DNA of 40,805 nt from a virus, in IMG/VR virus record IMGVR_UViG_3300031227_002944, positions 1 through 40,805 of that record. One strand, written 5' to 3'. Under the pieces are notes generated by a model. It searched no databases and was not told the origin of the DNA. It saw only the letters and a list, made by a program, of their open reading frames with translations. How positions within the stretch are numbered: position 1 is the stretch's first letter; every line of letters begins with the position of its first letter. The translations under genes were made by a program, and so were the position numbers. Shown in pieces: positions 765-30,546 of the stretch.

Positions 765-1367
765 ATGGCTGTATCAAAGACAGAGATAGTTAATAAAGCT
801 CTAACATTGGTAGGCGCTAATCCTATAGTCAACTTGACAGATGATACACAGAACGCGAGAGTAGTGAACAGGGTATATGAGATCTCGCTTAAAAGTATAC
901 TAAGTGAATGTAGATGGAATTTCGCTACTAAGCGTGCGCTCTTAGCTCAATCAGCTGATACGCTTGCATGGTACGATACTGGTGAAGTGTATGTCTATGT
1001 CAGGCCAAACAATGTAATCCGGATCTTCGGTACGAATAGTCCGGGAGCTACATGGCGTGAGGAACTGAACTATATCATATCGGATACTTCTGGGTTAGGT
1101 GTAAGGTATGTCTATTATAATGATGTAGCAAGTTCATACCCGGCATCGTTCACAGAAGCGTTCATAGATAAACTCGCTTCAGATATAGCGTTCATGATCT
1201 TAAACTCTAAAACAGTAGCTGAAGGGTTCTTAGAGAAATACGATCAGGTATCTTTAACTAAAGCGATGGCAGAGAACTCTCAGATCGGTACGCCGATGTA
1301 TCAGGATGATACTGCTTGGATTGATGCTAAACTTTCTGGAGCTGGAACTACAGTACCGGGCCAATAA
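765..1367 (+). CDS. Tail tubular protein A (head-tail adaptor, T7 gp11-like)
   Basis: The 200-residue product matches the tail tubular protein A family of T7-like podoviruses, which forms the dodecameric ring between portal and nozzle. The family signature is visible: N-terminal 'ALTLVGANPI', then 'R---R-YE-SL---L-ECRWNFATKRA-LA', then a Tyr-rich β-region, and an 'EAFIDKLASDIAF' helix near residues 128-145. The length is typical (about 190-200). It begins at ATG after AAGGAG and is followed after 9 bases by the nozzle gene, the usual A-B order. Confidence 0.92.
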   Translation: MAVSKTEIVNKALTLVGANPIVNLTDDTQNARVVNRVYEISLKSILSECRWNFATKRALLAQSADTLAWYDTGEVYVYVRPNNVIRIFGTNSPGATWREELNYIISDTSGLGVRYVYYNDVASSYPASFTEAFIDKLASDIAFMILNSKTVAEGFLEKYDQVSLTKAMAENSQIGTPMYQDDTAWIDAKLSGAGTTVPGQ

Positions 1368-1376
1368 GGGGGAATA

Positions 1377-3659
1377 ATGGCTAAAGTTGATGTCATAAAA
1401 ACTTCCTTTGCAGGCGGCGAGTTTGGAGCTTCACTCTTAGGAAGAACAGATGTAGAACAATATGATAATGCTTGTGAGATAGTACAGAATATGCTAGTCA
1501 GGCCTTTCGGATCGGTTATCTCGACTCCCGGCACAAGGATGATCCGGGAATGTAATCTATCCGCGCAGGGATCAGACTCGACAGTTAGGCTAGTAGATTT
1601 CGTATTCAACCAGACAGATGCTTATTCGATAGAGATGGGTAATAAGTATTTCTGGTTCTATACAGATCGTGGTGTAGTAGTATCTACCGGCACTACGCCT
1701 TATGAAGTAGCACATGTTTACGAATCAGATGAACTATTTGAGGTACAGTATACTCAGCTTAACGATCTTATGTGGTTCGCACATAAAGATCACCGGCCGC
1801 AGTTATTGACAAGAACAGCTGCTGCAAGCTGGGCGATAACTGATTACGACTTTTTAGGTGGCCCATTCCTTGAGGATAACACTTCAGATACAACTATCAC
1901 AGCTTCAGCCGCGACAGGCACAGCTGTTACTATAACATTAAGCACTACCGACACGATCTCATTCGTAGCTTCAGGTGCTACAATGGGGCATCGTGATACA
2001 TACTGGAAGATCGGGGATCTAACAACTAATGGCACACTCGCAGCTCAAGGTTATGTCAAGATAACCGCAGTAACATCACCTTCAACAGCTACATGTTCAG
2101 TAATGCAGACAATCTCTACAACATCCGCGACTAAAGTATTTGCTGAAGGCGCGTGGAGTTCTATCCGGGGCTGGCCGGCAAGAGTACAGTTCGATCGAGG
2201 TAGGTTATGGTTCGCTCGGACAGATCATGAACCTGCAGGTGCTTGGGGATCACATGTATATACTTACGATCAATTCGCATTAGATGAGCAGACAGACGAT
2301 CAGGGTATCAATATCAAATTAGCATCTAACCAATCAAACGAAATACAATGGCTCGCATCGGGTACTGGTCTATTAGCCGGCACTTACGGCGGAGCTTTCG
2401 TTATATCCGGGATAACTCCCGGTACTGTATCAGCTACACAAGAAGTAACCTACGGAACTGAAGCGATTCAGCCTAAGCGTATAGGAGATTTCTTCTACTA
2501 TGTGCAGCGGTTCAGGAAGAAAGTCAGGGAATTATACTATTTATGGGAGAATAACGCTTACAAAGCGCCTGATAAGACAATCCTATCACCGGAGATTACT
2601 AATCATGGGATAGTTGACATGGCGTATCAGGAAGTACCGGATACTATACTTTGGTGTGTAACTACAGATGGCACGATCGCGACACTTACGCGTGAGCCGG
2701 ATCAGAAAGTACAAGGCTGGTCAGAACAGACTACTGATGGTCAGTACGAAAGTATCTGCGCTATACCTTCACAGAGCTATAAACATGATGAAGTCTGGGT
2801 AATAGTTAAGCGTGTGATCGATGGAACGACTAAACGCTTTGTAGAGATGTTTGAGAGTATAGAAGTTCCTGAACGACAGGATCAGATGATCTATCTGCAT
2901 AGCGCACTCGATTTCAGCGCTTATGATCTCACATCCAGTTCAAGTGCTACTATCTCAGTATCAGCTACGGCGGGAACTTCAGTAGTATTGACATGCTCAG
3001 ACGATTATTTTATTACAAGCGATGAAACTATGAGGATCAGAGCGATCAATTCTTCTGGATCAACTGTAGGCGAGTTGAAAATCACATCGTATTCTTCTAC
3101 TAAAATAGTTACTGGTAAGATCACATACGCCTTCTCAGCTTCATCTATAGGTGCTGGGTATTGGGGCAAGAGTGTAGATGATCTTAGCGGGTTGGGGCAT
3201 CTTGAAGGCAAGACAGTTAAGGTATTAGCAGATGGCGGGCTAGATAAGCCTGATAAGGTAGTAAAATCCGCTGCAATAACTTTAGCGTATAACTATTTTG
3301 TTGTAGCTGCTGGTCTGCCGTATACTCAGAAGTTCTACACTTTACCATTCGATGAGGGATCTCAGCGCGGTACTTCACAAGGTAAGATCCAGCGTATCAA
3401 TCAAGTATCGTTTAAGCTGAACAGATCATATCGGGGATTCAAGATGGGCGGTACAGAAGATTTGGCAGAGCGAGTATCATATAGAGAACCAACTACTCTA
3501 TTAGGCACACCGGAGAAATTACATACTGGCATACTGGAAAATATCAATTTCAAAGACGATTATAGGTACGGAGCGCAGATCATGGTGATTAATGACGATC
3601 CTATGCCTATAGAGGTACTTAGCGTAATGGCGATGTTAGACACTCAAGATAAGGGGTAA
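1377..3659 (+). CDS. Tail tubular protein B / tail nozzle (T7 gp12-like)
   Basis: The 760-residue product is the tail nozzle that hexamerises below protein A. The N-terminus carries the family signature 'FAGGEFGASLLGRTDVEQYDNAC' followed by 'NMLVRPFGSV-S-PGTR', and further on 'FN-TDAYSIEMG-KYFWFYTDRG'. A central 'RGWPARVQFDRGRLWFARTDH' segment, also typical, lies near residues 265-285. The length matches family members (about 750-800). ATG 1377 follows GGGGGAATA. The gene is followed after 2 bases by an internal virion protein gene. Confidence 0.92.
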   Translation: MAKVDVIKTSFAGGEFGASLLGRTDVEQYDNACEIVQNMLVRPFGSVISTPGTRMIRECNLSAQGSDSTVRLVDFVFNQTDAYSIEMGNKYFWFYTDRGVVVSTGTTPYEVAHVYESDELFEVQYTQLNDLMWFAHKDHRPQLLTRTAAASWAITDYDFLGGPFLEDNTSDTTITASAATGTAVTITLSTTDTISFVASGATMGHRDTYWKIGDLTTNGTLAAQGYVKITAVTSPSTATCSVMQTISTTSATKVFAEGAWSSIRGWPARVQFDRGRLWFARTDHEPAGAWGSHVYTYDQFALDEQTDDQGINIKLASNQSNEIQWLASGTGLLAGTYGGAFVISGITPGTVSATQEVTYGTEAIQPKRIGDFFYYVQRFRKKVRELYYLWENNAYKAPDKTILSPEITNHGIVDMAYQEVPDTILWCVTTDGTIATLTREPDQKVQGWSEQTTDGQYESICAIPSQSYKHDEVWVIVKRVIDGTTKRFVEMFESIEVPERQDQMIYLHSALDFSAYDLTSSSSATISVSATAGTSVVLTCSDDYFITSDETMRIRAINSSGSTVGELKITSYSSTKIVTGKITYAFSASSIGAGYWGKSVDDLSGLGHLEGKTVKVLADGGLDKPDKVVKSAAITLAYNYFVVAAGLPYTQKFYTLPFDEGSQRGTSQGKIQRINQVSFKLNRSYRGFKMGGTEDLAERVSYREPTTLLGTPEKLHTGILENINFKDDYRYGAQIMVINDDPMPIEVLSVMAMLDTQDKG

Positions 3660-3661
3660 CT

Positions 3662-4186
3662 ATGGGTTTAATGACAGTTGTAGGGTTAGCTATGGGCGCG
3701 GCAACCATCTATCAAGGCTATGCAGCTAACGAGGATGCTAAGGATAACGCTGCTATTAAGCGCGTGCAAGCTGGTATGATAGATAATCAGAAGCAACTTC
3801 AAGCAGCACAGGATGATCGTGCGATCCGATTCGCTACTGGCGCAATCGTATCATCAGCTGCTGGGCGTGGACTTGAGATGTCCGGATCACCTATGGCTAT
3901 AATGATAGATACACAGACACAGATGGAGATGGATAAAGCGATTGGGCAGTATAACCTTGAAGTACAGAAAAGGTTTGTTATGGCTGAAGCTGGTGCTATA
4001 GAGAGATCAGGTCAGCGCGCTATGACAGCTGGTGTAGTAGGTGGATTGACACAGATGTTCGCTTCGGGTATGGATGCTTCTACATCGAAATCTACTTTGA
4101 CTAAGAAAACTCCAGCTATAAAGACAACTGGTAAAAGCGGGTATGGTAGCAGATCATCAGCATATAAGAGCTTGAATATAAATTAA
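3662..4186 (+). CDS. Internal virion protein A-like (T7 gp14-like)
   Basis: The 174-residue product has a hydrophobic, Gly/Ala-rich N-terminus (about residues 1-25), a long Ala/Gln-rich helical middle and the 'ATGAIVSSAAGRGLEMSGSP' segment seen in podoviral internal virion protein A. In T7-like phages this protein is ejected first and forms an outer-membrane pore. Assignment rests on these features and on the position directly after the nozzle and before two larger ejection genes. It starts two bases after the nozzle stop, RBS AAGGGG. Confidence 0.75.
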   Translation: MGLMTVVGLAMGAATIYQGYAANEDAKDNAAIKRVQAGMIDNQKQLQAAQDDRAIRFATGAIVSSAAGRGLEMSGSPMAIMIDTQTQMEMDKAIGQYNLEVQKRFVMAEAGAIERSGQRAMTAGVVGGLTQMFASGMDASTSKSTLTKKTPAIKTTGKSGYGSRSSAYKSLNIN

Positions 4187-4197
4187 AAGGGGTAGAT

Positions 4198-5568
4198 ATG
4201 CCAGAATTTCCACGACAACATTCAAATAGAGCTTTAACGACAGAGCAGCCCGCGCCGTTTGTGAACGATCGTACTGAAGATGCTAAGGTAGTATCTGGAG
4301 CTATAGCCGGTGTTGAGAAGGTAGCTGCTAAATGGACAGCTGGTGTTGAGAAGATACAGGCTGATACTGCTATGTACAATCTCCGGGCGGGTATGATGGA
4401 GATAGGTAACGAAGCTGTATTGGATACTGATATAGGATCTGAAGCTAAATATCAAAAGAAGATACAAGATCTCAGGAAAAAGAGTATTGAAGGTATAAAT
4501 AACCCGAAACTTATAGCGAGTATGACTCCGGAGCTTGATTATATGGCTCAGGTAGGTAGTATAGGGATACAGACAGAGTTTAGGAAGAAAGTAGTTATTC
4601 ATGGCCAGAGTCTTGTTTTAGGTAATTTGGCTCTGATAACAGAAAACCCTACTGCAGATAGCTCGGATCAGGTAAAAGCTGTTGTTGATCGAGCTGTAGT
4701 GGATGGTCTTTATGATGAAGTGGCTGGAACTAAGTTATACACGAAATCTATAGATCAGTTGCAGGAGAACGCCTTTATACAGGATACAAACGCTGATCCG
4801 GCACAGGCTAAAAAGAATTTAGAAGCTAACACTTACGGATTCGATGTAAGTGAAAAAGATGATGCGTGGAAAGTATATGATAGGGAAGTGCAGGCCATCC
4901 GTAACAGGACAGAAGAAGAAGTTACGACCGCGATCATAAACAAAACAATGAGTCCGATTGATCAAGTAGAACAGATCAAGGATCTTCTAAAGAAAGGCAA
5001 GGTAGATGCTAACTACGCTAAGAGTACAATTAATAATCTGGAAACTGTTAAGATTCCTAAGCTTTCAGCTCTTAGTAGTATTAAGGAAAGAAATCTATTA
5101 ACTGATAAGTTTGCAGCTTTGAAGAAGAAAGAATGGTTTTACAAGGAAGCATCATTCGCAGAAAGAACACAATTCCGAGCAGATGTCTTTAACGCACATA
5201 GTAGTGGAGCGTTAAGCACTAAACAGTTAGAAGCTTATTTAGGCGAAACCAGTAAGAAATTCTTTAGCGATGGCGAGTTTGTAAACGCTTTAGAAGCGGT
5301 GATCGCATCATCTAAGATATATCAAGGTGAACATGGGCCAGCTGAAGCAGAATCGCAAATGACATACAATCTCATGGAAAAGGTGATGGCTGGCATGAAT
5401 CCAAACGATGCGCTGGCAGAAGTTAAAGAGGAATTTCAAAAGAGTACCAACCCTAATAGGGCCAATTATAATATAGGTGATATTGTACCAAACCCAAGAA
5501 CAGGTAAGAGTTATAAAGTAACAGGTTTCGATGATGATGGTGAACCGCTTGTAGATGAGGTGAAATGA
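4198..5568 (+). CDS. Internal virion / ejection protein (T7 gp15-like position)
   Basis: The 456-residue protein is Lys/Glu/Ala-rich and mainly helical, with no signal peptide or membrane segment. It starts with a Pro/Gln-rich tail (PEFPRQHSNRAL). The C-terminal 40 residues ('VPNPRTGKSYKVTGFDDDGEPLVDEV') look like a small β-domain. The position between gp14-like and the giant gp16-like gene suggests the middle ejectosome component. I recognise no enzymatic motif. Its stop overlaps the next start (ATGA at 5565). Confidence 0.7.
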   Translation: MPEFPRQHSNRALTTEQPAPFVNDRTEDAKVVSGAIAGVEKVAAKWTAGVEKIQADTAMYNLRAGMMEIGNEAVLDTDIGSEAKYQKKIQDLRKKSIEGINNPKLIASMTPELDYMAQVGSIGIQTEFRKKVVIHGQSLVLGNLALITENPTADSSDQVKAVVDRAVVDGLYDEVAGTKLYTKSIDQLQENAFIQDTNADPAQAKKNLEANTYGFDVSEKDDAWKVYDREVQAIRNRTEEEVTTAIINKTMSPIDQVEQIKDLLKKGKVDANYAKSTINNLETVKIPKLSALSSIKERNLLTDKFAALKKKEWFYKEASFAERTQFRADVFNAHSSGALSTKQLEAYLGETSKKFFSDGEFVNALEAVIASSKIYQGEHGPAEAESQMTYNLMEKVMAGMNPNDALAEVKEEFQKSTNPNRANYNIGDIVPNPRTGKSYKVTGFDDDGEPLVDEVK

Positions 5569-8500
5569 GATTAGATCAAGCACTACAAACTAACGAAACT
5601 GCTGTAGTCAATCCGACTAAGGGTATCCGTTTATCGGAAGCTGTTAGCGAGGATAAGCCTGAGCTTGAATGGCGCGCTTTGACTCAGGAGATGCAAGCTA
5701 ATTCTGTTGGTATGACTCCGGAGCAGGAACAGGCTTATAGGAAGGCTAAAGAGATCGAGCTGGTCAAAGAGTTTCCTACAAACTATTATTCCGGGGTATC
5801 AGCTAAGATGGAATCTTTTGCTGAAGGAGTATTACCGATCCGGCCTAAAGAGTTTAAGCGGCCCGGAGTTGTCGAAGCTCATCCGATAGCTAACGCTGTT
5901 GGTAAATTAGCTGGGCTCATCACTACAGGTATAATGACAGCTGGAGTAGCTCCTGCGGTAACATTTGCTCCGCAGTTAGCAGCACTTCCGACATTAGCGC
6001 GTTTTGCAGCTGGTAGGATGGCTCAGAGCGGTATTACCTTTGGGCTTAAAGAGTTGACAGACAATATGGCTGAGCTGATAGGTGGCGAGAAAAAGGATTT
6101 CTTAACAGTTACCAAAGATGTACTCACATCAACAGCTTTTGGAGCGGGCTTGGGAGCGGTAGGATCTATTGCTAGCCCAATAGCCCGGATACCGGCACAA
6201 GCAGCTTATGGCTACATGACATCTAAGATGGGTGGAGCTACGAATCAACAAGCCGGGATCAATGCTGGGATGTTCGCTGTATTTGGTCTTTTCAACACAA
6301 AAAACCTTAATGTGGCTTATAAAGAAGCTGCTTACGCGGGCGCTAAAGAAGCTCTAGCTGATCGTATGGTAGCGCAAGGCGTTAATAAGGAACGAGCAGC
6401 TATGGTAGCTGATAGATATTTCCGGTATGCTTTGCATAAAGCTGGAGCTATGAGATCTGGGAAGCCTGATTGGAATAACATTAAATTGAAAGATCTGGAT
6501 AGTTTCAACAGCGCTATGCGGAAAGGGTACAAGATAATATTAGATCCTGAGATGAGAGCCGCTAATGTTGGATCTGATGTTAGTATGGAAGAAAACATCA
6601 AAGAATTTGATTCAGGGTTAGCAGCGCCAATCTCTAGACCACTATCTCAGAACATACCAAATACTGTACTTAACAGAGTGCCAGTTGAGAAAAGAGGTTT
6701 AGTAAAAGCTTTATTCCAGCAGAATACACATGAAGCTGTTAATGACATAATAAATCAAGATGAAGAATATCTCGATGCTGTAATGCAAAACAATACTGCT
6801 CCAAAGAACATTTATGATAACACTAAAACAACAGATTACCAGCAAACTTATCTCGAAAATCCTACAAAGAAACTTGCGTATAGTAAAATACCCGCAGCTA
6901 AAGGGAAACCTGAAGTTATCTTTATTATCGGTATGCCGGGATCTCAGAAAAGCCAGTATGTAAAAGGACTTGGTAAAGATGCGACTCATGTACAAATTGA
7001 TCCGGATGATGCTAAAGAATATATACCGAAGTTTGCTTCTAACAAGAATCTTGCTGGAAATGTACATCTTGAGAGTGCTTATATGGCTGAAGTAGTTTTG
7101 GCTGATAAAGCTATTGCTGATAAGAAAAATATTGTCTGGCCGAAGCTGGGTAAAAACCCGGTATCGCTAAAAGAAAAGATCGATATGATGCGCGAAAATG
7201 GTTATAAGGTGATCTTAGTACATAATGGTTTATCTACAACTGAAAGTATAAAAAGAACATATAAGCGTTGGGCGGAAGATGGCCGTTTAGTAGATAAGGA
7301 TTATATCAGGGATCTTGATTCCTTGACTATTAAGGAAGTTTATGATAAACTTAAAATGGATGTGGATGAGTTTTTGGATCAGAATGTTAATGTTGCTTAT
7401 GGTCTGAAAACCATCAAAGTAGAGGAAGGTAAAAATGTCATTAGTCAAGAGCAAGAATTGGGAAGGGTGGAAAGAGGACAACCCGGAGTTGACAAAACAG
7501 CTCAAGGAAAGACTCAAGCAGCGCAAGCAATCCCAAAAACTAGAAAACCCGCAGAAGTAAAACCCTCAAAACCTACTGTACGGCAGACTCTTAAACAAAG
7601 ACTTGGAGAACTTCAAGACAATGAAGCTAAAAGATCTTATCTAAAAGAAGCTTTAGATGAGGTAGATAAACTTCGTTCAGAGTATGTCGGTCAGATCAAA
7701 CGATACAAAGATGGATACTTAAAAGAAGAACTACAAAAATTCCCTAAATCTTATATCACTACTAAACAAACCGGCATGTTTCCAGATGAAGCTATGCAGC
7801 AACTCCGGGATAGTGGAATAGATATAAAAGATGAAGTTGCCCTAAAAGATTATTTTCAAGATATAGAAACTCGCCGGGCAGAGATTAAAGATGAACTCAA
7901 AAATCTTCAGCCTAAGAAAATAACATATACAGAACCTACCATAATAAAGCGGCGTTTAGCTGATATGAAACGCAGTTTCAAAGAAGGCAAAGCATTTTCT
8001 CTGAAAGAGATTAAGGCTGTTCAAAAAGAACTGATTGATATGATCTCTTTCTTAGAAGCCAAAGATCGGGCGAAATTCATCCGGACTATCAAAAATGTTC
8101 AGACAGTTAAGCAGCTTGAGGATGTGGTGGATAGTATCGCTTATCGCATGCAGCGAATCCATGAACAGACTCAAAAAGCCAAGATCGGTGTATCCATCAA
8201 GAAAGAACTCACCAAGACGAAACCCGCTAAACAAGGTGATCGCAAAATAGGTAAATATGACTATGAGAGCAACGAGTTGTTTAAGAAACTTCGCTCGTAT
8301 TCCAATCTATCTCAGAAGAAAGCTCAAGAAGCGCTAGATAACATGCCGGGTGAGAACCTAAGCACAATGGATCTGATCAGAAGGCGTATGCTATCGATGA
8401 AATCTAACGGCGCGGCATCTTCGTTGGAGATCTACCAGCGTGTACTTTCTGATATTCAGATGTTGAAAGAGATCGGTACGGCAGTTAAAGATAACGAGTC

Positions 8501-10421
8501 TTTCGATAAGATGGTGAACCGGCAGGAGAATGTCGAAGAAGCTCTGGCTGGGATAGATAAAGTCAAGAGTGGTGCAGTTAAGAAAGGGTATGCTCAAGGA
8601 TTCGGAAATATCCATTCTGTTTATAATATGGTATTCGGTAAGAAATTCGCTGATAAATACAATCCTGAGATCGATGAAAGCAGAAGGAATACAGCTATTT
8701 ATTTCAAGACTAAATCGGTAACGGAGAAAGCTTCTAAAATCTATGGCGATAAGAATATCTTGAAAGTGTTTCAAGATATGGCGCAAGAGAAGTACGAGCT
8801 TACAGACTTTGAAGGACTTAATACTGAAATCAGCCGGATGGAACTGATCGATATTTACAACTCTCTAAAAAACCCTGTTGTTGAAAAACGCTATCATGAT
8901 GCTTTCGGTGAAGATCAGATCAATGGTCTGATGAGCAAATTATCCCCTCAAGATATGGAAGTTGCTGATCTTTTACGAGAATCGGTGCAAGAATATAGGC
9001 CTGTACTTAACGATAGGAATATAGAGATCACCGGACAAGATCTTGGTAATGTAGAGAACTACTGGCCGGCTACATCAGAATATCAACCTAGCGTGTACGA
9101 TGATGTCAGGATGCAAGGTGAAACGCCTTCTGCTATGAAAGAACGCGCTAAAGGTAAAGTTATTCCTAGACCGGTTAATGCTTGGCATAAATTCGGTAAG
9201 CATATAGCTGAAGCTGAACATGTAGAAAATCTAAGCCGGGAGCATGAAGCACTCAAGAGGATGCTTACAGATCGTAGAGTCAAGCATGAGATTATCCAAA
9301 GATTCGATGAAAATGTTTATAGAACTATGATTCAGCAACTCGATAGTATATCCTTAAACGCTCAGACAGCTAATGTCGATGCTGTAAGTACCATGTTTGA
9401 AAAGGCCCTAAACAACTGGGTTAAAGCTAAATTGCCGAGTCCATCAATATTATTAAGGCAGCTAATGTCGGCAAGTAACTATATGGAAGTTATGCCGGTA
9501 GCTAAATGGGCTGCTGGATACACAAAAGGTGTACTTCAGCCTAAAAAGACTTTTGATTATATGTGGAAAAACGCACCTTTCTTAGAAGCGAGATTCCATA
9601 AAGGATATAAGGAAGCGTTATCCCGCGCACTTGATGATGCTCAGAAGATGAGTGTAGGCCAGAGTAATTGGGCGATGGGATTATCTGCTATGGTAAGGGC
9701 TGGGGATATAAGCGCTATCATATATGGTGGTAAGCCTTATGTGGATCATCTTATATCAACAGGGATGAGTAAGGAAAGAGCGTTTGAGGAATTTGAGAAA
9801 GCTACACTTAGGGCTCAGCAAGCTGGCCTTAATTCAAGTTTATCAGAGTTTCAGAAGAAAAAAGGATTTTATAGGATGATGCTGGCTTTCAAGAATACTC
9901 CAGCACAGTATCTTCGGAAGATGGGCGATGCGACTATATCGTGGCGAAATGGTGATATAAGCGGAGAACAGTACGCTAAGACCATGACGATCTACGGAGT
10001 GATCCAACCGATACTTTATGTTATGGCAGGTTTCGCTGTTAAGGAAGGTTTGAAAAAACTTGGCAGTATTGTCCGGGGAGATGATAGAGATACAGAATGG
10101 GGCGAATTAGGCGATGATATTATTATGCAGTTGATAGTGAACCCGGTTACAGCTGTTCCTTTCCTTAGCGGATTTGCGAGATATTTTATTCGTAAGAAGA
10201 TGGGTAAGAAAGCTTATAACATGACGAGCCTTCCCATGATCTCCGACTTAGAAACTGTAGTCAGGAAGCTTGGTAAAGAAGAAATTACTTTTGATGATTG
10301 GGTTACAATAGCCGGTACGGCATCTGAGATAACAACTTCAGCGCCGATACTTCAGGTTAAAAGGATATATGAGTATTTAACTAAAAATGAAGATTCTGGA
10401 TCTACACCGGGAAAATTATAA
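5565..10421 (+). CDS. Giant ejection protein with embedded zeta-toxin-like kinase domain (polyvalent protein)
   Basis: The 1618-residue protein occupies the T7 gp16 position and should be ejected into the host. Around residues 100-240 are Gly/Ala-rich hydrophobic helices. Residues about 445-600 resemble the zeta-toxin/P-loop kinase family: Walker A GMPGSQKS (456-463), IDPDDAKEYIPKF (478-490), HLESAYMAE (501-509), GYKVILVH (546-553) and an RTYKRWAEDGRLV lid (564-576). A Lys/Glu coiled-coil linker follows. The C-terminal third ('VENYWPATSEY', 'NAWHKFGKHIAEAEHVE', 'FKNTPAQYLRKMGD') resembles large polyvalent phage proteins. The Walker A is odd, with Gln where Gly normally precedes Lys. No lysozyme-like motif was found. 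The domain call is by eye. Confidence 0.85.
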   Translation: MRLDQALQTNETAVVNPTKGIRLSEAVSEDKPELEWRALTQEMQANSVGMTPEQEQAYRKAKEIELVKEFPTNYYSGVSAKMESFAEGVLPIRPKEFKRPGVVEAHPIANAVGKLAGLITTGIMTAGVAPAVTFAPQLAALPTLARFAAGRMAQSGITFGLKELTDNMAELIGGEKKDFLTVTKDVLTSTAFGAGLGAVGSIASPIARIPAQAAYGYMTSKMGGATNQQAGINAGMFAVFGLFNTKNLNVAYKEAAYAGAKEALADRMVAQGVNKERAAMVADRYFRYALHKAGAMRSGKPDWNNIKLKDLDSFNSAMRKGYKIILDPEMRAANVGSDVSMEENIKEFDSGLAAPISRPLSQNIPNTVLNRVPVEKRGLVKALFQQNTHEAVNDIINQDEEYLDAVMQNNTAPKNIYDNTKTTDYQQTYLENPTKKLAYSKIPAAKGKPEVIFIIGMPGSQKSQYVKGLGKDATHVQIDPDDAKEYIPKFASNKNLAGNVHLESAYMAEVVLADKAIADKKNIVWPKLGKNPVSLKEKIDMMRENGYKVILVHNGLSTTESIKRTYKRWAEDGRLVDKDYIRDLDSLTIKEVYDKLKMDVDEFLDQNVNVAYGLKTIKVEEGKNVISQEQELGRVERGQPGVDKTAQGKTQAAQAIPKTRKPAEVKPSKPTVRQTLKQRLGELQDNEAKRSYLKEALDEVDKLRSEYVGQIKRYKDGYLKEELQKFPKSYITTKQTGMFPDEAMQQLRDSGIDIKDEVALKDYFQDIETRRAEIKDELKNLQPKKITYTEPTIIKRRLADMKRSFKEGKAFSLKEIKAVQKELIDMISFLEAKDRAKFIRTIKNVQTVKQLEDVVDSIAYRMQRIHEQTQKAKIGVSIKKELTKTKPAKQGDRKIGKYDYESNELFKKLRSYSNLSQKKAQEALDNMPGENLSTMDLIRRRMLSMKSNGAASSLEIYQRVLSDIQMLKEIGTAVKDNESFDKMVNRQENVEEALAGIDKVKSGAVKKGYAQGFGNIHSVYNMVFGKKFADKYNPEIDESRRNTAIYFKTKSVTEKASKIYGDKNILKVFQDMAQEKYELTDFEGLNTEISRMELIDIYNSLKNPVVEKRYHDAFGEDQINGLMSKLSPQDMEVADLLRESVQEYRPVLNDRNIEITGQDLGNVENYWPATSEYQPSVYDDVRMQGETPSAMKERAKGKVIPRPVNAWHKFGKHIAEAEHVENLSREHEALKRMLTDRRVKHEIIQRFDENVYRTMIQQLDSISLNAQTANVDAVSTMFEKALNNWVKAKLPSPSILLRQLMSASNYMEVMPVAKWAAGYTKGVLQPKKTFDYMWKNAPFLEARFHKGYKEALSRALDDAQKMSVGQSNWAMGLSAMVRAGDISAIIYGGKPYVDHLISTGMSKERAFEEFEKATLRAQQAGLNSSLSEFQKKKGFYRMMLAFKNTPAQYLRKMGDATISWRNGDISGEQYAKTMTIYGVIQPILYVMAGFAVKEGLKKLGSIVRGDDRDTEWGELGDDIIMQLIVNPVTAVPFLSGFARYFIRKKMGKKAYNMTSLPMISDLETVVRKLGKEEITFDDWVTIAGTASEITTSAPILQVKRIYEYLTKNEDSGSTPGKL
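7435..7560 (+). CDS. Candidate small overlapping ORF (+1 frame) inside the giant ejection gene
   Basis: ATG 7435 is preceded by AGAGGAAGG at good spacing and opens a 41-residue frame ending at TAA 7558-7560. The product is charged and coherent (MSLVKSKNWEGWKEDNPE..., rich in Lys, Gln, Glu). In the long frame the same DNA encodes a low-complexity linker (QPGVDKTAQGKTQAAQA). This could be a genuine nested gene, or a relic from when the zeta-like unit was a separate gene with its own downstream neighbour. Evidence is the RBS and residue composition only. Confidence 0.3.
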   Translation: MSLVKSKNWEGWKEDNPELTKQLKERLKQRKQSQKLENPQK

Positions 10422-21557: not shown

Positions 21558-22724
21558 GTGGAATATCTGAAAGAAGAACCAAGAAAGTTTCTGATGGATG
21601 GAACGAAGATGGCATGGTACGGCGATCTGTTACAAGACTTTATGGATGGGAAAAGAATCGCGCCGGTAACTCTTGATATGGGGATCAGCAAGAATTGTAA
21701 TATGCGCTGCATCTTTTGTTATGGAGAATACCAACAGCCATCAACAGATTACATACCTACAGCGAAACTATTAGAGATCGCTAAGGATGCTGGGGAGTTA
21801 GGTGTTAAGGGTATAGCGATTATAGGTGATGGTGAACCTACCATGAATAGAGGGTTATATCCTTTCGTAGAAGCTTTGAAAGCTAACGGAGTTGAGCCGG
21901 CGATCGCAACGAATGGTTTACTTTTGGAAGATGAACAGACAGAGATCTTAACTAAAAACTGTTCTTGGCTGCGATTCACGATCTGCGCTGTAGGCGAGAA
22001 GTACCGCCAGATCCATAAGAAAACGCCGGAAGGATCTTTTGAGAAGATGCGGCACAACATAGCGCATGCTGTTAAACATAAGGGTAATTGTACTATAGGA
22101 CTTCAGATGGTACTTGTTCCGGAATGTTTCGATCAGGTGATCCCGCTGGCGCAGCTGGGTATAGAGCTGGGTGTGGATTATGTACAGATCAAGCAATTCT
22201 CAGATCCGGGTGAAGGTATGACGATGCACTTTGATATGAACCAGTATAAGACTATAAGAGATCTTCTGGAAGAAGCTGAGAAAATGTCAACTCCAGAAAC
22301 TGAGATAATCATCAAGTGGAAAGCTATGGAAGATAGCACTAACATCACGATGGAACAGAAATGGGAGTTTGATCGTTGTATAGATCTGCCGTTCTTGTTC
22401 CAGATCTCCGGGAATGGTAAGTGTTATCCTTGCGGTTATCTATTCAACCATGAAGATTATTGCTACGGCGATCTTACCAAGCAGAGCTTCAAAGAGATAG
22501 TAACTGGTGAGAGATATTGGAGTGTTATAGAAAAAATATCTAAGATGGATCTCAAGGATCTATGTACCGGACAATGCCGGCATAGCTGTGGTAACGAGTT
22601 TATGTGTAAATTTATTAAGGAATATAATGGAAACGCTAAAGAAACTATTGTAAAGATCTGCGGTAGTGAAGATCAGTATAATAAACTAATGGCGAATCCG
22701 CCTGAACACATGTCTTTTATATGA
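21558..22724 (+). CDS. Radical SAM/SPASM-type enzyme
   Basis: The 388-residue protein has the radical-SAM cluster motif CNMRCIFC (Cys47, 51, 54), 'IIGDGEPTMNRG' as the GGE-like SAM-binding motif, and a C-terminal Cys-rich region ('GKCYPCG', 'CTGQCRHSC', 'FMCKF') like a SPASM/Twitch domain binding extra Fe-S clusters. SPASM enzymes modify peptides, sugars or small metabolites; the substrate is not deducible. It starts at GTG 21558 behind AAAGGAGAAA and is the first gene of the metabolic island. Its stop overlaps the second radical-SAM gene. Confidence 0.9.
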   Translation: MEYLKEEPRKFLMDGTKMAWYGDLLQDFMDGKRIAPVTLDMGISKNCNMRCIFCYGEYQQPSTDYIPTAKLLEIAKDAGELGVKGIAIIGDGEPTMNRGLYPFVEALKANGVEPAIATNGLLLEDEQTEILTKNCSWLRFTICAVGEKYRQIHKKTPEGSFEKMRHNIAHAVKHKGNCTIGLQMVLVPECFDQVIPLAQLGIELGVDYVQIKQFSDPGEGMTMHFDMNQYKTIRDLLEEAEKMSTPETEIIIKWKAMEDSTNITMEQKWEFDRCIDLPFLFQISGNGKCYPCGYLFNHEDYCYGDLTKQSFKEIVTGERYWSVIEKISKMDLKDLCTGQCRHSCGNEFMCKFIKEYNGNAKETIVKICGSEDQYNKLMANPPEHMSFI

Positions 22725-23560
22725 ATAAAATAGTTATACCAGATCATTTCAATTATTGCAGCGCGTTTATCACATTCGCGTGCAACATGTCGTGTTCCTA
22801 CTGTATCAACAAATACAACGGACTCCATAAATATAAACAGATGTCAGCTGCGGATTGGATCAAAGGACTCAACCGGATACAAACCCGGAAGGATCTTCCG
22901 ATCACGATCACCGGCGGCGAGCCTACAGTATATCCCGGATTTTACGAGCTAATCAATGGGATAGATAAGAAGATCCCGGTAGATCTATTGACTAATGGTC
23001 TGTTCGATATGGATGAATTTACGAGTAAGATCCCGCCAAATAGACTCAAGCGTGATGCGAAATACGCTTCGATCCGGTTTTCGTTCCATCCCGGTCAGAC
23101 AGATGCGCGTGAGATCGTACTCTTAGCGCATGCTATGGGTTATCATGGCTATTCTGTAGGGATCTGGGCGGTAGATACCGGGGATGATAGGATAACTGAA
23201 GCTCGCAGACTCGCTGGATGTTATGATGTAGATTTTAGGATGAAAGAATATCTAGATGCTACTCATGGGAACTATAAATACCCTGATGGCTTAGATGGCA
23301 AACGCAAGAAGTGTCTATGTAAGATGTCGGAACTCTTAATAGCGCCAGATGGCAGGCTGTTTAGATGCCATCATGATCTGTATCATGGAATCAACTCTTA
23401 CGGCCATATCTTAGATGATAAGGTGAACCTACCTACAGACTTCTTGCCTTGTGATAACTACGGACTATGTTCACCATGCGATCTGAAATTGAAGTTTGAT
23501 AGGTTTCAGGAGCTGGGGCATTGTTCTGTAACTATAAAGGAGCAAGATGAAAAAGAGTAA
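22721..23560 (+). CDS. Second radical SAM enzyme
   Basis: The 279-residue protein has CNMSCSYC (Cys21, 25, 28) and a clear 'ITGGEPTVYPG' (GGEP 65-68). Additional Cys near the C-terminus ('CLCKM', 'RCHHD', 'PCDNYGLCSPCD') suggest an auxiliary Fe-S cluster. Overlap with the previous gene (ATGA at 22721) points to a paired function, with both enzymes acting on one product or pathway. The substrate is unknown. It overlaps the next gene by 14 bases. Confidence 0.9.
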   Translation: MNKIVIPDHFNYCSAFITFACNMSCSYCINKYNGLHKYKQMSAADWIKGLNRIQTRKDLPITITGGEPTVYPGFYELINGIDKKIPVDLLTNGLFDMDEFTSKIPPNRLKRDAKYASIRFSFHPGQTDAREIVLLAHAMGYHGYSVGIWAVDTGDDRITEARRLAGCYDVDFRMKEYLDATHGNYKYPDGLDGKRKKCLCKMSELLIAPDGRLFRCHHDLYHGINSYGHILDDKVNLPTDFLPCDNYGLCSPCDLKLKFDRFQELGHCSVTIKEQDEKE

Positions 23561-24008
23561 AATTCAGCCGTATGGATCAAGAGGAACTATAAAGAAGAAA
23601 GTTGAGCGCAAACCATTCACTTATTCATTCGCAGAACTGATCGATAAGCTATCAATCGTATCCCGGAAAGAGTATTACGGATTGCCGGGCGCGCGGAAAG
23701 AGTTGGATCTTATAATGAGCTGGCTGAACGATGCAGGGATAGAAGCCTACACACTTCTTTCTATTATGAGGATCACTCAGGCTAACGCGGATATATGGAA
23801 CAAAGAACATGAGATGCGTAACGCGACAGTAGGCGAGATGCCAGAAAGTGTGGTTGGCAGGATCGCTGAACAGGTCAGAGAATACAACAAGACAAGAACG
23901 CGCTATATGAACGAGCTTTCAAAGGCAGTAGGAGATTCTCAAGTTATGGAGAAGATCAGGCATTTGAGCGAGGAAGTCTATGATAAATACTACAATCAAG
24001 GCGAATAA
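23547..24008 (+). CDS. Helical hypothetical protein between radical SAM and transketolase genes
   Basis: The 153-residue product has a basic N-terminus (KKSKIQPYGSRGTIKKK), then 'FTYSFAELIDKLSIVSRKEYYG', which recalls small helical proteins found beside sugar-biosynthesis and glycosyltransferase genes, followed by long charged helices ending '...EEVYDKYYNQGE'. I cannot name a function. It overlaps the genes on both sides (14 and 29 bases), so it is translated as part of the same unit. Confidence 0.7.
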   Translation: MKKSKIQPYGSRGTIKKKVERKPFTYSFAELIDKLSIVSRKEYYGLPGARKELDLIMSWLNDAGIEAYTLLSIMRITQANADIWNKEHEMRNATVGEMPESVVGRIAEQVREYNKTRTRYMNELSKAVGDSQVMEKIRHLSEEVYDKYYNQGE

Positions 24009-24657
24009 GCTCAGGAAAGAAGTGCTGAGCGTAGCTATCCGGAACAAGATGGGCCATATCGCGCCATCTCTCTCCTGCTTGGATATATTAACGATGCTGC
24101 ATTACAAGATCGCTGATCCCAAAGACACTATTATCTTATCTAAAGGGCATGGATGTTACGGCTTATACGCGATCTGGGCTGATCTGGGGCTGATAACACG
24201 CGAGAAGTGGTCGAAATTCGATCTCCCCGGATGCGTAGATGGTTACGGATCGCTTGGTCATGGGCTGCCGGTAGCTGTCGGAGTCGCTTACGCTAACAAA
24301 AAGCTATGTAATGGTTTGCATACTTGGGTGATTGTAGGTGATGGCGAGATGCAGGAAGGATCGAATTGGGAAGCTTTATCGTTTATGTACCATCATGATC
24401 TTAGGAATATAACAGTTATCATAGATGATAATGGATTACAAGCGATGGATAGGATCGACAATGTTATGCACCAGATCCTGAGCAACAGGCTGAAGGGCTG
24501 GGGTTTGAATGTTTATAAATGCGATGGCCATAATCACGCTGAGTTAGAAGGTCTGAAGTTCAAGCCGCAGGTTCTTATCGCTAAGACGATTAAAGGCTAT
24601 GGCGTGGAATATATGGAAAATAAAGCTGAATGGCATTTTAGGTGTCCTAAAACATAG
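23980..24657 (+). CDS. Transketolase N-terminal subunit (TPP pyrophosphate domain)
   Basis: The 225-residue protein is the PP half of transketolase, which moves two-carbon units between sugar phosphates using thiamine diphosphate. Visible motifs: 'SKGHGCYGLYA' (54-63), 'GSLGHGLPVAVG' (90-101), and the TPP/Mg motif 'GDGEMQEGSNWEA' (120-132) with 'IIDDN' (147-151). Split transketolases of this size occur in bacterial O-antigen and capsule clusters. The partner half is the gene at 24941, separated only by a small inserted gene. Start 23980 is preceded by GAGGAAG. Confidence 0.92.
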   Translation: MINTTIKANKLRKEVLSVAIRNKMGHIAPSLSCLDILTMLHYKIADPKDTIILSKGHGCYGLYAIWADLGLITREKWSKFDLPGCVDGYGSLGHGLPVAVGVAYANKKLCNGLHTWVIVGDGEMQEGSNWEALSFMYHHDLRNITVIIDDNGLQAMDRIDNVMHQILSNRLKGWGLNVYKCDGHNHAELEGLKFKPQVLIAKTIKGYGVEYMENKAEWHFRCPKT

Positions 24658-24660
24658 GGG

Positions 24661-24671
24661 GATAAGATGAA
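24661..24671 (+). repeat. Short imperfect direct repeat, left side of possible cassette
   Basis: GATAAGATGAA here and GATAAGGATGAA at 24928-24939 bracket the small gene between the transketolase halves. They differ by one inserted base, so this is weak evidence for insertion. Confidence 0.35.
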
Positions 24672-24957
24672 TGATTTTACTGTTATTAAAGACCAGAGAA
24701 TAAGAACAAAAGTTTGTAAGTTAATGTCTGATATGCTAGATAATCCAGATGATTGTGGCATATATCCCACATCAGAGTTTATGTCAAAGATGGAAGATTT
24801 TATTCTTGAGATTAGGAACGAAGCCATTGGATGGGCTTGGGCTGAAGCCTGTACTCAGTTAGATTCAGGTAAAGATCCTAGAAAACATGAACAAGGCAAT
24901 CTTCTGATAGACTCGGCAAGAGACTTAGATAAGGATGAAAATGGTAAACAGAAATAA
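24667..24957 (+). CDS. Hypothetical protein interrupting the transketolase gene pair
   Basis: The 96-residue product is acidic and helical ('ISEF'-type charged helices, 'AIGWAWAEACTQLDSGKDPRKH'). No family recognised. It lies between the two transketolase halves, has an RBS (TAGGGGGATAAG), contains a single GATC although neighbours have many, and is bracketed by short imperfect repeats. It was probably inserted into an older two-gene transketolase unit. Its 3' end overlaps the next gene. Confidence 0.65.
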   Translation: MNDFTVIKDQRIRTKVCKLMSDMLDNPDDCGIYPTSEFMSKMEDFILEIRNEAIGWAWAEACTQLDSGKDPRKHEQGNLLIDSARDLDKDENGKQK

Positions 24958-25393
24958 TATAATAGATCATTTGGTAGAGACTTTCAAGGATGAGCGGTAC
25001 TATCTCCTGATCTGCGATTGCGGGTTTGCTAAAGTCGATGCGCTGCAAGAGAAGTATCCGGATCGTGTGATCAACTGCGGGATCATGGAGCAGGCTACAG
25101 TAGGGATCGCAGCAGGGATGGCTCAGGCTGGGATGATCCCGATAATCTATTCGATAGCAGCTTTCGCGGTGTACCGGGCGCTTGATCAGATCCGAAGCGA
25201 TATTGTGCTTATGAACCGGAATGTCAAGATCATAGGTAACGGATCAGGTGATTTTTTCAAAGCTCTGGGCGAATGTCATTGTGTATATGATGATGATATA
25301 GATATTCTCAGGATAATCGATATGCCAGTTTATGAAGGAGATCAGTTTGAATCATGGATAAGAAGCGAAAAAGCGGGATATATCAGAGTATGA
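24941..25393 (+). CDS. Transketolase C-terminal subunit (pyrimidine-binding domain only)
   Basis: The 150-residue protein is the Pyr domain: 'CGIMEQATVGIAAGMAQAGMIPIIYSIAAFAVYRALDQIR', with Glu50 as the catalytic residue contacting the TPP pyrimidine ring. The third transketolase domain is absent, making the pair smaller than most split transketolases. I prefer ATG 24941, five bases after AAGGA; ATG 24935 lies on the RBS itself. It should form a heterotetramer with the 23980 product. The stop overlaps the next start (ATGA at 25390). Confidence 0.88.
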   Translation: MVNRNNIIDHLVETFKDERYYLLICDCGFAKVDALQEKYPDRVINCGIMEQATVGIAAGMAQAGMIPIIYSIAAFAVYRALDQIRSDIVLMNRNVKIIGNGSGDFFKALGECHCVYDDDIDILRIIDMPVYEGDQFESWIRSEKAGYIRV

Positions 25394-25968
25394 GTATAGC
25401 AGTTTGTATGCCTACACATAATGAAGATCCAATAGTGATCCAATCTGTAGTGGCCAGAATACGAGCTGTTATAGGGGAAAGCGGTCATATTTGCGTGTAT
25501 AATGATGAACAGGGTAGGGGCAAGGGATATGCTCTTAGAATGGCTCTCAGAGCTGCAGAAGTGTATAATCCGGATTATTACATATTCATTGATGGAGATG
25601 GTGATATTGATCCGGAACAGATAGGGAAAATTGCGCTGCATTTATCTATGGGATACGATATTGTAGTCGGCAAGAAGAAGATGCCAACAAAACTTGATCG
25701 GAAGATCCTCACATTCGCATCCCGGTTGTGGATTAAGCTGCTATTTGGTATAAAAGTTGACACTCAGACCGGGCTTAAAGGGTTCAATTATAAGCCGGAA
25801 TGGGAAAGAGATGGCTGGGCGTTTGATGTAGAGATCTTGTATAATGCGAAGAAGATGGGTAAAAGTATGAAAGAAGTACCTGTTTATGCTATAGTTTCAT
25901 CCGGGAAGTCGATCAGAGATATTATGTCAACTTTGTGGGATACGATAAAAATAAGGATGGGGTTATGA
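25390..25968 (+). CDS. GT2 glycosyltransferase, dolichyl/polyprenyl-phosphate-sugar synthase-like
   Basis: The 192-residue protein has a GT-A fold pattern: 'MSIAVCMPTHNED', 'QGRGKGYALRMALRAA' and the metal/nucleotide-sugar motif 'IDGDGDIDPEQI' (DGD 68-70), then 'DTQTGLKGF'. This order is typical of dolichyl-phosphate mannose/glucose synthases, which put a sugar on a polyprenyl-phosphate carrier. No membrane anchor is present. An upstream ATG at 25354 would overlap the transketolase gene with poor RBS spacing, so ATGA 25390 is chosen. The last two codons (Gly-Leu) have been changed by the cassette inserted after it. Confidence 0.85.
   Translation: MSIAVCMPTHNEDPIVIQSVVARIRAVIGESGHICVYNDEQGRGKGYALRMALRAAEVYNPDYYIFIDGDGDIDPEQIGKIALHLSMGYDIVVGKKKMPTKLDRKILTFASRLWIKLLFGIKVDTQTGLKGFNYKPEWERDGWAFDVEILYNAKKMGKSMKEVPVYAIVSSGKSIRDIMSTLWDTIKIRMGL
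25945..25961 (+). repeat. 17-bp direct repeat flanking an inserted gene (left)
   Basis: ATAAAAATAAGGATGGG is identical to 26404-26420, 459 bases away. It spans the end of the glycosyltransferase gene and supplies the RBS for the inserted gene. Confidence 0.9.
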
Positions 25969-26396
25969 AGAAAACTATAGACGGACTTGGTGAAGTATTG
26001 AATTGGTGGGAAGGCATGAAGATGTGCTTCACCAAAAAAGACAAGGAATGGAAAGAATTATGTCAGGGAGAGGTAGACCTTAAACACGCTATGGCTGTAT
26101 TTCGGAGGTTGCTTGAGGTTTTATATCCATTACAGACATTACAAATAACCAAAGCTAGCGGGAGGACAGATATGGAAAACATCATGGAAGATAAAAGACC
26201 CATAAAAAGAATAACGATACATAGTAACGAACCCGAAGGAGAGGCATCTTATATTGTTGACCCTAGGTGGTATGATGAAATAAAACCATATCACGAAAAT
26301 GGAGAAATGGCTTCTGTGGTATGGTTCGCAATCTATAAAGACAATGCAATGGTTTCAAGAGTCAATTCTAGATATGTAGATGCTATAAGTTATTAA
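25965..26396 (+). CDS. Hypothetical protein in an inserted cassette
   Basis: The 143-residue product has a helical, Trp/Met/Lys-rich N-terminal half and a β-rich C-terminal half ('PIKRITIHSNEPEGEASYIVDPRWYDEIKPYHENGEMASVVWFAIYKD'). No family recognised. It sits between 17-bp direct repeats, contains no GATC although neighbouring genes have several per 200 bp, and interrupts an ATGA-coupled glycosyltransferase pair. An internal in-frame ATG at 26172 has its own strong RBS (GGGAGGA), so a shorter 74-residue form is possible. Confidence 0.7.
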   Translation: MKKTIDGLGEVLNWWEGMKMCFTKKDKEWKELCQGEVDLKHAMAVFRRLLEVLYPLQTLQITKASGRTDMENIMEDKRPIKRITIHSNEPEGEASYIVDPRWYDEIKPYHENGEMASVVWFAIYKDNAMVSRVNSRYVDAISY

Positions 26397-26403
26397 ACAC
26401 ACT

Positions 26404-26420
26404 ATAAAAATAAGGATGGG
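26404..26420 (+). repeat. 17-bp direct repeat flanking an inserted gene (right)
   Basis: Identical to 25945-25961. It provides the RBS of the next glycosyltransferase. Removing one repeat plus the 442 bases between restores a perfect ATGA stop/start overlap between the two glycosyltransferase genes. Confidence 0.9.
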
Positions 26421-26423
26421 AAC

Positions 26424-27119
26424 ATGAAAGTATCGATCATAATACCGAATCATGGTAGGGATATATCCGCGACAATCCAAGCTGTTAAGGATCTGAAGGA
26501 TGTTGAACTGCTTGAGGTCGATTTGCTGAAGGAGCGATCTGTACAGCGTAACAGAGGGATCAAGGAAGCTAAAGGAAAATATATCTTCATGTTAGATAGT
26601 GATCAAGTACCTACAAAGGCGTTGGTGCTTGAGTGCATATACATCATGGAAGCGTATCCGGCATGTCAGGGGATCTATATCCCGGAGATTATTGTAGGTG
26701 CTGATTGGTTCACAAGGCTCAGGAGATTTGAAAGACAGTTTTATACTTCTACACCGATCGATGTCGTGCGGTTTGTCAGGGCGAGTAACTGCCCGAAATT
26801 CGATGAAACACTCACCGGGCCAGAAGATGCTGATTGGGATCTCCGGATCAAAGGTGAGAAGCGGCAGAGTAAGAACTCGCTATATCATCATGATAACATC
26901 AATTTACGCGATTATATCGGCAAGAAATCGTATTATACCCGGAGTATGAGCAAATTCTTAGAGAAGAACCCGGATGCTAAGGTGCTGAAAGCTTGGTATC
27001 GTATATTTGGGGTATTCATGGAGAACGGCAAGTGGCGGCAGCTGGCTAAACATCCGATCATGGCGTTCAAACTGTACCTTCTTATTTTTATAAGAGGGAT
27101 AATTTACTTACGAAAATGA
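26424..27119 (+). CDS. GT2 family glycosyltransferase
   Basis: The 231-residue protein begins with the GT2 signature 'KVSIIIPNHGRD', has 'SVQRNRGIKEAKGKYIFMLDSDQVP' with the metal-binding DSD (58-60), and 'TGPEDADWDLRIK', where ED (134-135) is the likely catalytic base region. A hydrophobic, basic C-terminal segment ('FKLYLLIFIRGIIYL') may attach it to the membrane. It likely adds a sugar to a lipid-linked or polysaccharide acceptor. It overlaps the B12-radical-SAM gene (ATGA at 27116). Confidence 0.88.
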   Translation: MKVSIIIPNHGRDISATIQAVKDLKDVELLEVDLLKERSVQRNRGIKEAKGKYIFMLDSDQVPTKALVLECIYIMEAYPACQGIYIPEIIVGADWFTRLRRFERQFYTSTPIDVVRFVRASNCPKFDETLTGPEDADWDLRIKGEKRQSKNSLYHHDNINLRDYIGKKSYYTRSMSKFLEKNPDAKVLKAWYRIFGVFMENGKWRQLAKHPIMAFKLYLLIFIRGIIYLRK

Positions 27120-30535: not shown

Positions 30536-30546
30536 GGGGTGAAAAT

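What the first reader, a model, noticed from the sequence alone, without database searches (positions are those of the whole stretch)
6897..7365. Zeta-toxin-like kinase domain built into the ejected gp16-like protein
Residues about 445-600 carry the zeta/P-loop order (GMPGSQKS, IDPDD, HLES, GYKVILVH, RTYKRWAEDGR). If delivered with the DNA, it would act as a nucleotide or nucleotide-sugar kinase in the first moments of infection. Zeta toxins phosphorylate UDP-N-acetylglucosamine, which would link to the glycan theme of the island. Gln in place of the Gly before the Walker Lys is unusual and may alter or abolish activity.
Basis: partly seen in the sequence, partly recalled or inferred. Interest (0 to 1): 0.7.

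Follow-up and report, generated by a model that had tools for sequence, protein, structure and literature searches.

The report
Swappable kinase domain in phage ejection protein
A phage related to T7 carries a toxin-like kinase domain inside a protein that is probably injected into the bacterium with the DNA; related phages carry other enzymes in the same place, but this copy has an odd change at its ATP site and there is no support for the cell-wall target first proposed for it.

Summary
Residues 445-583 of the 1618-aa ORF (5565-10421, +) match Pfam Zeta_toxin (E 7e-14). The AlphaFold model (pLDDT 86) matches zeta/PezT toxins best among solved structures (Z about 18). The ORF occupies the gp16 slot of a T7-type ejection-protein cluster, so injection is likely but inferred. 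The domain belongs to a phage zeta subfamily, here called PKVG, which I recovered from 80 viral contigs. In 44 of these the zeta gene flanks T7-type tail-tube or fibre genes. Lys462, Asp481, Arg568 and Arg574 are kept. Gln461 replaces a Gly present in all 117 aligned relatives and is unique to the window, so ATP binding by this copy is doubtful. Two contacts that zeta toxin uses for UDP-GlcNAc (Thr118, Arg120) are Leu and Lys here, and mostly Val and Gly/Asp in the subfamily; the UNAG and cell-wall link is not supported. The same C-terminal scaffold (about 850 aa) in other phages carries ADP-ribosyltransferase, nucleotidyltransferase or RelA/SpoT-like domains, or none: a swappable payload site. 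The concept has precedent (polyvalent proteins; zeta-MuF fusions, Iyer 2017). I did not find a gp16-slot version described in the papers I searched.

The parts
5565..10421 (+). 1618-aa gp16-like ejection protein carrying the kinase domain
   Evidence: Single open frame; lies after tail-tube A/B, gp14-like and gp15-like genes and before fibre genes; same order in relatives
6897..7448 (+). zeta/PezT-like P-loop kinase domain (about residues 445-628)
   Evidence: Pfam PF06414 E 7e-14; AlphaFold2 pLDDT 86.2, pTM 0.83; PezT 2p5t Z 17.9, zeta 1gvn/3q8x Z 17.8; Foldseek E 1.5e-9
6930..6953 (+). P-loop GMPGSQKS (Walker A), residues 456-463
   Evidence: Sequence and alignments
6945..6947 (+). Gln461 (CAG) in place of the invariant P-loop Gly (zeta Gly45)
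   Evidence: Gly in 80/80 PKVG-set and 37/37 other aligned viral zeta domains, zeta and PezT
6996..7010 (+). IDPDD; Asp481 (7005-7007) = zeta Asp67, the catalytic base
   Evidence: Invariant in 117/117 viral homologues; role from PMC3062530
7065..7076 (+). HLES (residues 501-504), form of the viral HEES motif
7140..7151 (+). PKLG motif (526-529), mark of the PKVG subfamily, at the place of the zeta EGTG(R) substrate motif
   Evidence: Pro in 79/80 PKVG-set domains against Asp in 37/37 of the other set; zeta has Glu116
7254..7286 (+). RTYKRWAEDGR; Arg568 = zeta Arg158 and Arg574 = zeta Arg171
   Evidence: Arg158 position invariant, Arg171 position 115/117 Arg
7407..10418 (+). conserved mostly helical C-terminal scaffold (from residue 615), shared with relatives that lack the kinase
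   Evidence: BLAST to L011 from residue 615, to L007 from 639; model all-helical, pLDDT 66
5886..6185 (+). hydrophobic segments of the N-terminal part (residues 108-142, 186-207)
   Evidence: Kyte-Doolittle scan
9981..10181 (+). two C-terminal hydrophobic segments (residues 1473-1494, 1518-1539), candidate membrane helices
   Evidence: Kyte-Doolittle scan
765..1367 (+). tail tube A-like protein
   Evidence: phrog_394 E 2.9e-35
1377..3659 (+). tail tube B-like protein
   Evidence: phrog_376 E 4.7e-161
3662..4186 (+). gp14-like internal virion protein
   Evidence: phrog_418 'internal virion protein' E 1.5e-8
4198..5568 (+). gp15-like protein by position
   Evidence: Homologues at the same place in relatives

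Best explanation
The segment is a genuine zeta/PezT-type P-loop kinase domain of a phage subfamily (PKVG), built as a payload into the gp16-like ejection protein of a T7-type podovirus. The payload site lies between the N-terminal part and the conserved helical C-terminal scaffold, and different phages fill it with different enzymes acting on nucleotides or proteins. Proposed mechanism: the protein is packaged in the head, ejected ahead of the DNA, threads the envelope and places this domain in the host cytoplasm. There the subfamily's kinase uses ATP to phosphorylate a small nucleotide-type host molecule (a nucleotide, NAD-like compound or signalling nucleotide) rather than UDP-GlcNAc, helping takeover or blunting defence in the first moments. 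In this phage the P-loop Gly-to-Gln change has probably weakened or abolished ATP binding, so this copy may be on its way to being a non-enzymatic module. Shown by computation: fold, family, synteny, payload swapping, residue changes. Inferred: virion location, delivery, substrate, effect on the host, loss of activity.
For: Family and fold. Subfamily: 177 viral loci confirmed, 80 read; the window falls among the PKVG set in the tree (99/94). gp16 slot: PHROG hits; tailA-tailB-gp14-gp15-this-fibre order in relatives; weak but consistent similarity of the scaffold to three ejectosome core structures (7eyb, 9jyy, 8vb2; Z 4.6-5.2 over about 200 residues). Recurrence: 44 of 80 PKVG zeta genes flank T7-type tail-tube B or fibre genes. 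Payload swapping on the same scaffold: ART-PolyVal E 6e-20 in L165, Pol-beta NTase in L003, RelA/SpoT-like match in L005, zeta profile absent from 15 relatives. Residues: K46, D67, R158 and R171 equivalents kept; G45Q; T118L; R120K. RhoA G17A, a change at the Gly I know to precede the P-loop Lys, is described as a nucleotide-free mutant (PMC3044755).
Against: No virion proteomics or biochemistry. Scaffold homology to gp16 by structure alone is weak (Z under 8 may be a common arrangement) and PDB sequence searches found none. The window domain is the longest end branch of the tree (1.6), which fits altered function or decay. No substrate can be read from sequence.
Confidence: 0.55

Rival explanations
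1. Dead payload: the domain no longer binds ATP and persists as a structural or binding module, or is a recent pseudo-enzyme.
For: Gln461 at a position that is Gly in 117/117 homologues; three changes at 21 near-invariant columns where 56 of 59 subfamily representatives have at most one; longest end branch; relatives do without the domain.
Against: 18 of 21 near-invariant columns are kept, including Lys, Asp and both LID Arg residues; frame fully open; confident fold.
Confidence: 0.45
2. UDP-GlcNAc kinase that injures the cell wall during entry, as Iyer et al. suggested for zeta domains in polyvalent proteins and.
For: Overall fold and catalytic core of zeta toxin; published suggestion (PMC5512222).
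Against: UNAG-contact Thr118 is Leu here and Val in 72/80 subfamily members; Arg120 is Lys here, mostly Gly or Asp in the subfamily; Thr128 is Lys (contacts). Thr118 to Val in PezT is non-toxic (PMC3062530). Large viral zeta proteins also occur in haloarchaeal viruses, whose hosts have no peptidoglycan (host fact from general knowledge).
Confidence: 0.1
3. Polynucleotide-kinase-like activity on DNA or RNA ends (protecting or repairing injected DNA or cleaved tRNA).
For: Bacterial polynucleotide kinase is the next structural match after zeta/PezT (4gp7 Z 15.7); weak PHROG polynucleotide-kinase hit of a subfamily member.
Against: Zeta/PezT match better and over more residues (186-193 against 158); no phosphatase or ligase partner domain found in the protein.
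Confidence: 0.15
4. The protein is not a virion protein and not injected; the gene order is incidental.
For: No direct virion evidence; scaffold has no confident match to a solved ejection protein.
Against: Fixed place between gp14/gp15-like and fibre genes in many phages; upstream neighbour matches 'internal virion protein'; weak core-protein match.
Confidence: 0.1

Closest known systems
Zeta / PezT toxins of epsilon/zeta toxin-antitoxin systems (1gvn, 3q8x, 2p5t; PF06414)
   Same: Fold over the whole domain, P-loop Lys, catalytic Asp, two LID arginines
   Different: Fused inside a large phage protein, no adjacent antitoxin gene, P-loop Gly is Gln, UNAG-contact residues changed
Polyvalent proteins of phages and conjugative elements, including zeta-MuF fusions (Iyer et al. 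2017, PMC5512222)
   Same: Large protein thought to be injected with DNA; zeta, ART, Pol-beta NTase and RelA/SpoT domains are all on their list; scaffold relatives carry ART-PolyVal
   Different: Here the carrier is a gp16-position ejection scaffold of T7-type podoviruses; only one enzymatic domain recognised in the window protein; no MuF domain found
T7 gp16 and PhiM1 ejectosome core proteins (7eyb, 9jyy, 8vb2)
   Same: Gene position, size, helical make-up, hydrophobic segments; weak structural similarity over about 200 residues
   Different: No sequence similarity detected; no lytic transglycosylase domain found; carries a kinase
AvrRxo1 (zeta-like effector that phosphorylates NAD; PMC5491322, PMC5087710)
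   Same: Zeta-like fold, injected effector, Z 14.3
   Different: Plant-pathogen type III effector with another delivery route; lower structural similarity than zeta
Bacterial and T4 polynucleotide kinases
   Same: P-loop kinase core, Z 12.5-15.7
   Different: Lower score and shorter match than zeta/PezT

Membership tests
Zeta_toxin domain family (PF06414) | Profile match above curated cut-off | tested here: met
   52.1 bits against 22.3
Zeta_toxin domain family (PF06414) | Zeta/PezT P-loop kinase fold | tested here: met
   pLDDT 86; Z 17.8-17.9
Zeta_toxin domain family (PF06414) | Intact P-loop GxxGxGK[ST] | tested here: not met
   GMPGSQKS; the Gly before Lys is Gln, Gly in 117/117 homologues
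Zeta_toxin domain family (PF06414) | Catalytic Asp and LID arginines | tested here: met
   Asp481, Arg568, Arg574
UNAG-kinase zeta/PezT toxins | UNAG-contact residues Thr118, Arg120, Thr128 (Glu100) | tested here: not met
   Leu, Lys, Lys (Glu aligned to Glu100)
UNAG-kinase zeta/PezT toxins | Adjacent epsilon/PezA antitoxin gene | tested here: not met
   Gene overlaps the 456-aa ORF upstream and is followed 12 bases later by a fibre gene
UNAG-kinase zeta/PezT toxins | UNAG phosphorylation and toxicity | not testable with these tools
   Needs biochemistry
Polyvalent proteins | Several disparate domains in one large polypeptide with swapping between relatives | tested here: inconclusive
   One enzymatic domain in the window; swapping seen in the family (ART-PolyVal, NTase, RelA/SpoT-like)
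Polyvalent proteins | Injected with the DNA | not testable with these tools
   Inferred from gene order only
T7 gp16-type ejection protein | Place after gp14/gp15 in the ejection cluster | tested here: met
T7 gp16-type ejection protein | Sequence or fold homology to gp16 | tested here: inconclusive
   No sequence hit; Z 4.6-5.2 over about 200 residues
T7 gp16-type ejection protein | N-terminal lytic transglycosylase (T7-type only) | tested here: not met
   No Pfam match in residues 1-440; according to the review this domain is also missing in P22-like members

The most novel reading that the evidence does not exclude
The gp16-like ejection protein of a large group of uncultured T7-type podoviruses is a polymorphic delivery vehicle with an interchangeable enzyme slot, and its PKVG zeta-type kinases are an unrecognised class of injected kinases acting on a host nucleotide or signalling molecule other than UDP-GlcNAc, active in this phage through a non-canonical P-loop.
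Probability: 0.25. Interest if true: 0.75.

Novelty: new variant of a known kind. Interest (0 to 1): 0.5.

Why it matters
Ejection proteins are the first phage proteins to enter a cell, before any phage gene is expressed. A swappable enzyme slot in the gp16 position would mean that common podoviruses deliver varied effectors with the DNA, as T4 does with Alt, and would give a ready list of early host-takeover or counter-defence enzymes to test. The PKVG zeta subfamily is widespread in environmental phages and its substrate looks different from that of the toxin after which it would be annotated, so the automatic label 'zeta toxin' may mislead.

Tried and rejected
Single-sequence search of viral contigs with the kinase segment found no relative; profiles were needed. 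The Pro in place of the zeta Glu116 / viral Asp first looked like decay; a motif scan showed it is the mark of a subfamily, so that argument was dropped. The genome-contig scan gave only two loci because the pattern was narrow, so nothing is concluded about cellular genomes. Plasmid hits are weak, and the two read are distant relatives of another zeta type. PDB sequence searches with the scaffold found no relative; Foldseek with the scaffold model gave no significant match. NCBIfam gave nothing for the window protein. The join of the window with L117 in the tree is two long branches meeting and is not relied on. The N-terminal 440 residues of the window have no significant BLAST match in scaffold relatives, so the payload edge on that side is not sharply defined. 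L013 was suspected of a nucleotidyltransferase from sequence reading only; no profile supports it. A HEFGH motif in L165 (residue 664) looks like a metallopeptidase but has no profile match.

Full report
Observation. Pfam Zeta_toxin matches residues 445-583 with 52.1 bits against a cut-off of 22.3 (E 7.1e-14). A profile of 20 viral zeta domains with the window first finds S. pyogenes zeta in the PDB at E 6.5e-20 and PezT at 4e-15. The AlphaFold2 model of residues 426-629 has mean pLDDT 86.2 and pTM 0.83. Its best solved matches are PezT (Z 17.9, 2.5 A, 186 residues) and zeta (Z 17.8, 191-193 residues), ahead of bacterial polynucleotide kinase (15.7) and AvrRxo1 (14.3). The fold is therefore not in doubt.

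Context. The window is a 40,805-base virus record with a terminase, head-tail adaptor and major head protein. Upstream of the ORF lie tail-tube A-like (phrog_394), tail-tube B-like (phrog_376), a match to 'internal virion protein' (phrog_418) and a 456-aa ORF; downstream lie two fibre-like genes, the first with a PHROG tail hit. In scaffold relatives that hold enough sequence (for example L005, L006, L011, L013) the same order tailA, tailB, gp14-like, gp15-like, this protein, fibre is found. This is the gp16 place. The C-terminal 843 residues model as all-helical with modest confidence (pLDDT 66). The only related-looking structures are three ejectosome core structures (9jyy, 7eyb, 8vb2; Z 5.2, 4.9, 4.6 over 193-206 residues, same stretch of the model). 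That is suggestive, not proof, since Z values this low can be a common arrangement. So 'gp16-like' rests mainly on gene order, and injection is inferred.

The scaffold and its payloads. Searches gave 20 distinct contigs that share residues from about 615-835 to the C-terminus at 32-65% identity. In L011 the shared part starts at window residue 615, just behind the kinase fold; the kinase is missing and a shorter, different N-terminal part precedes it. The zeta profile finds nothing in the 15 records scanned, and no kinase was seen in the later ones. Other members carry other domains before the scaffold: L165 an ADP-ribosyltransferase of polyvalent proteins (PF18760, E 6e-20, residues 513-620), L003 a Pol-beta nucleotidyltransferase motif (PF18765 E 3e-4 and PF01909, the latter over cut-off when its pieces are joined), L005 a sub-threshold RelA/SpoT match (E 8.5e-5) with a weak LPD14 hit, L006 the similar sequence without a RelA/SpoT match. 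The slot is thus a place where enzymes are exchanged. Not all of these matches are above curated cut-offs; ART-PolyVal and zeta are.

The kinase subfamily. A motif scan found five large phage proteins with NIVLPKVGDNP in a zeta domain. A profile then confirmed 177 viral loci, 80 of which were read. In the tree the window falls among this set (99/94), on the longest end branch. In 44 of 80 loci the zeta gene has T7-type tail-tube B upstream or a T7-type fibre N-terminus downstream; none of these proteins shares the window's scaffold, so the kinase sits on several unrelated carriers at the same genomic slot. Other carriers include a portal protein (L118) and a ddrB-ParB polyvalent protein (L085).

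Active site. Mapped on zeta numbering, the window keeps Lys46 (Lys462), Asp67 (Asp481, the base), Lys70, Arg158 (Arg568) and Arg171 (Arg574). It differs at Gly45, which is Gln461; all 80 subfamily and 37 other viral domains, zeta and PezT have Gly. A change of the corresponding Gly in RhoA (G17A) gives a protein described as nucleotide-free (PMC3044755; that Gly17 directly precedes the P-loop Lys is from my own knowledge), so a Gln there is expected to harm ATP binding; this is an analogy, not a test. Of 21 columns conserved in at least 95% of 59 non-redundant subfamily members, the window keeps 18; 56 of 59 members differ at none or one in a leave-one-out count. The domain is therefore an outlier but not a wreck.

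Substrate. In zeta the sugar nucleotide is held by Thr118, Arg120, Thr128 and Glu100 besides Asp67, and PezT with Val in place of the Thr118 equivalent is non-toxic (PMC3062530). The window has Leu, Lys, Lys and Glu; the subfamily has Val in 72 of 80 at Thr118 and mostly Gly or Asp at Arg120. UDP-GlcNAc in the toxin's binding mode is therefore unlikely. Zeta-bearing large proteins also occur in haloarchaeal viruses, beside a MuF gene in HCTV-16. I favour a nucleotide-type substrate because a zeta-like relative, AvrRxo1, phosphorylates NAD (PMC5491322) and because the other payloads of this scaffold mostly handle nucleotides; this is inference.

Known precedent. Iyer et al. 2017 (PMC5512222) described polyvalent proteins injected with DNA, listed zeta-like kinases fused to MuF in phages and in conjugative elements, and suggested they weaken the wall; ART, Pol-beta NTase and RelA/SpoT domains are on the same list. 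The review of ejection proteins (PMC8954989) describes domain swapping of a peptidoglycan hydrolase between gp15 and gp16; the passages I read do not mention kinases. A search for zeta toxin with internal virion protein in the held library found no paper. The concept is therefore known; the gp16-slot version and the PKVG residue pattern appear to be an extension, within the limits of that library.

Verdict. Observation confirmed; interpretation partly supported: fold yes, injection likely, UDP-GlcNAc and glycan link unsupported, activity of this copy doubtful.

Noticed in passing
window 21558-31640: Cluster of four radical-SAM proteins (one with B12-binding domain, one with SPASM), two family-2 glycosyltransferases and a methyltransferase behind the fibre genes; unusual cargo for a 40-kb podovirus.
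   Followed up: no
L165:4307-9358: Same scaffold family with an ADP-ribosyltransferase of polyvalent proteins (PF18760, residues 513-620) and a HEFGH motif at residue 664.
   Followed up: partly
L003:4429-8337: Scaffold relative with a Pol-beta nucleotidyltransferase motif (GSHAKGTARMEGDFLKGTEPSDIDLVII) at the payload place.
   Followed up: partly
L005:4733-9502 and L006:4910-9481: RelA/SpoT-like stretch (GGY..HYEK...GE.Q.HT) and weak LPD14 hit before the scaffold; only L005 reaches a sub-threshold PF04607 match.
   Followed up: partly
L118:3979-6549: Phage portal protein (PF06381) with a zeta kinase domain fused at its C-terminal side.
   Followed up: no
L085:4948-8082: Zeta kinase and ddrB-like ParB domain in one protein downstream of a T7-type tail-tube B gene.
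   Followed up: no
L023:2569-6510, L024:2452-6081, L025:2554-6435: Haloarchaeal tailed viruses carry zeta domains in proteins of about 1200-1300 aa (in L024 next to a Mu gpF-like gene) although their hosts lack peptidoglycan.
   Followed up: partly
L015:3854-9448: 1865-aa scaffold relative with a long extra N-terminal part (motif ENYFAHTR...ELQSDLFQKG) that no Pfam family covers.
   Followed up: no
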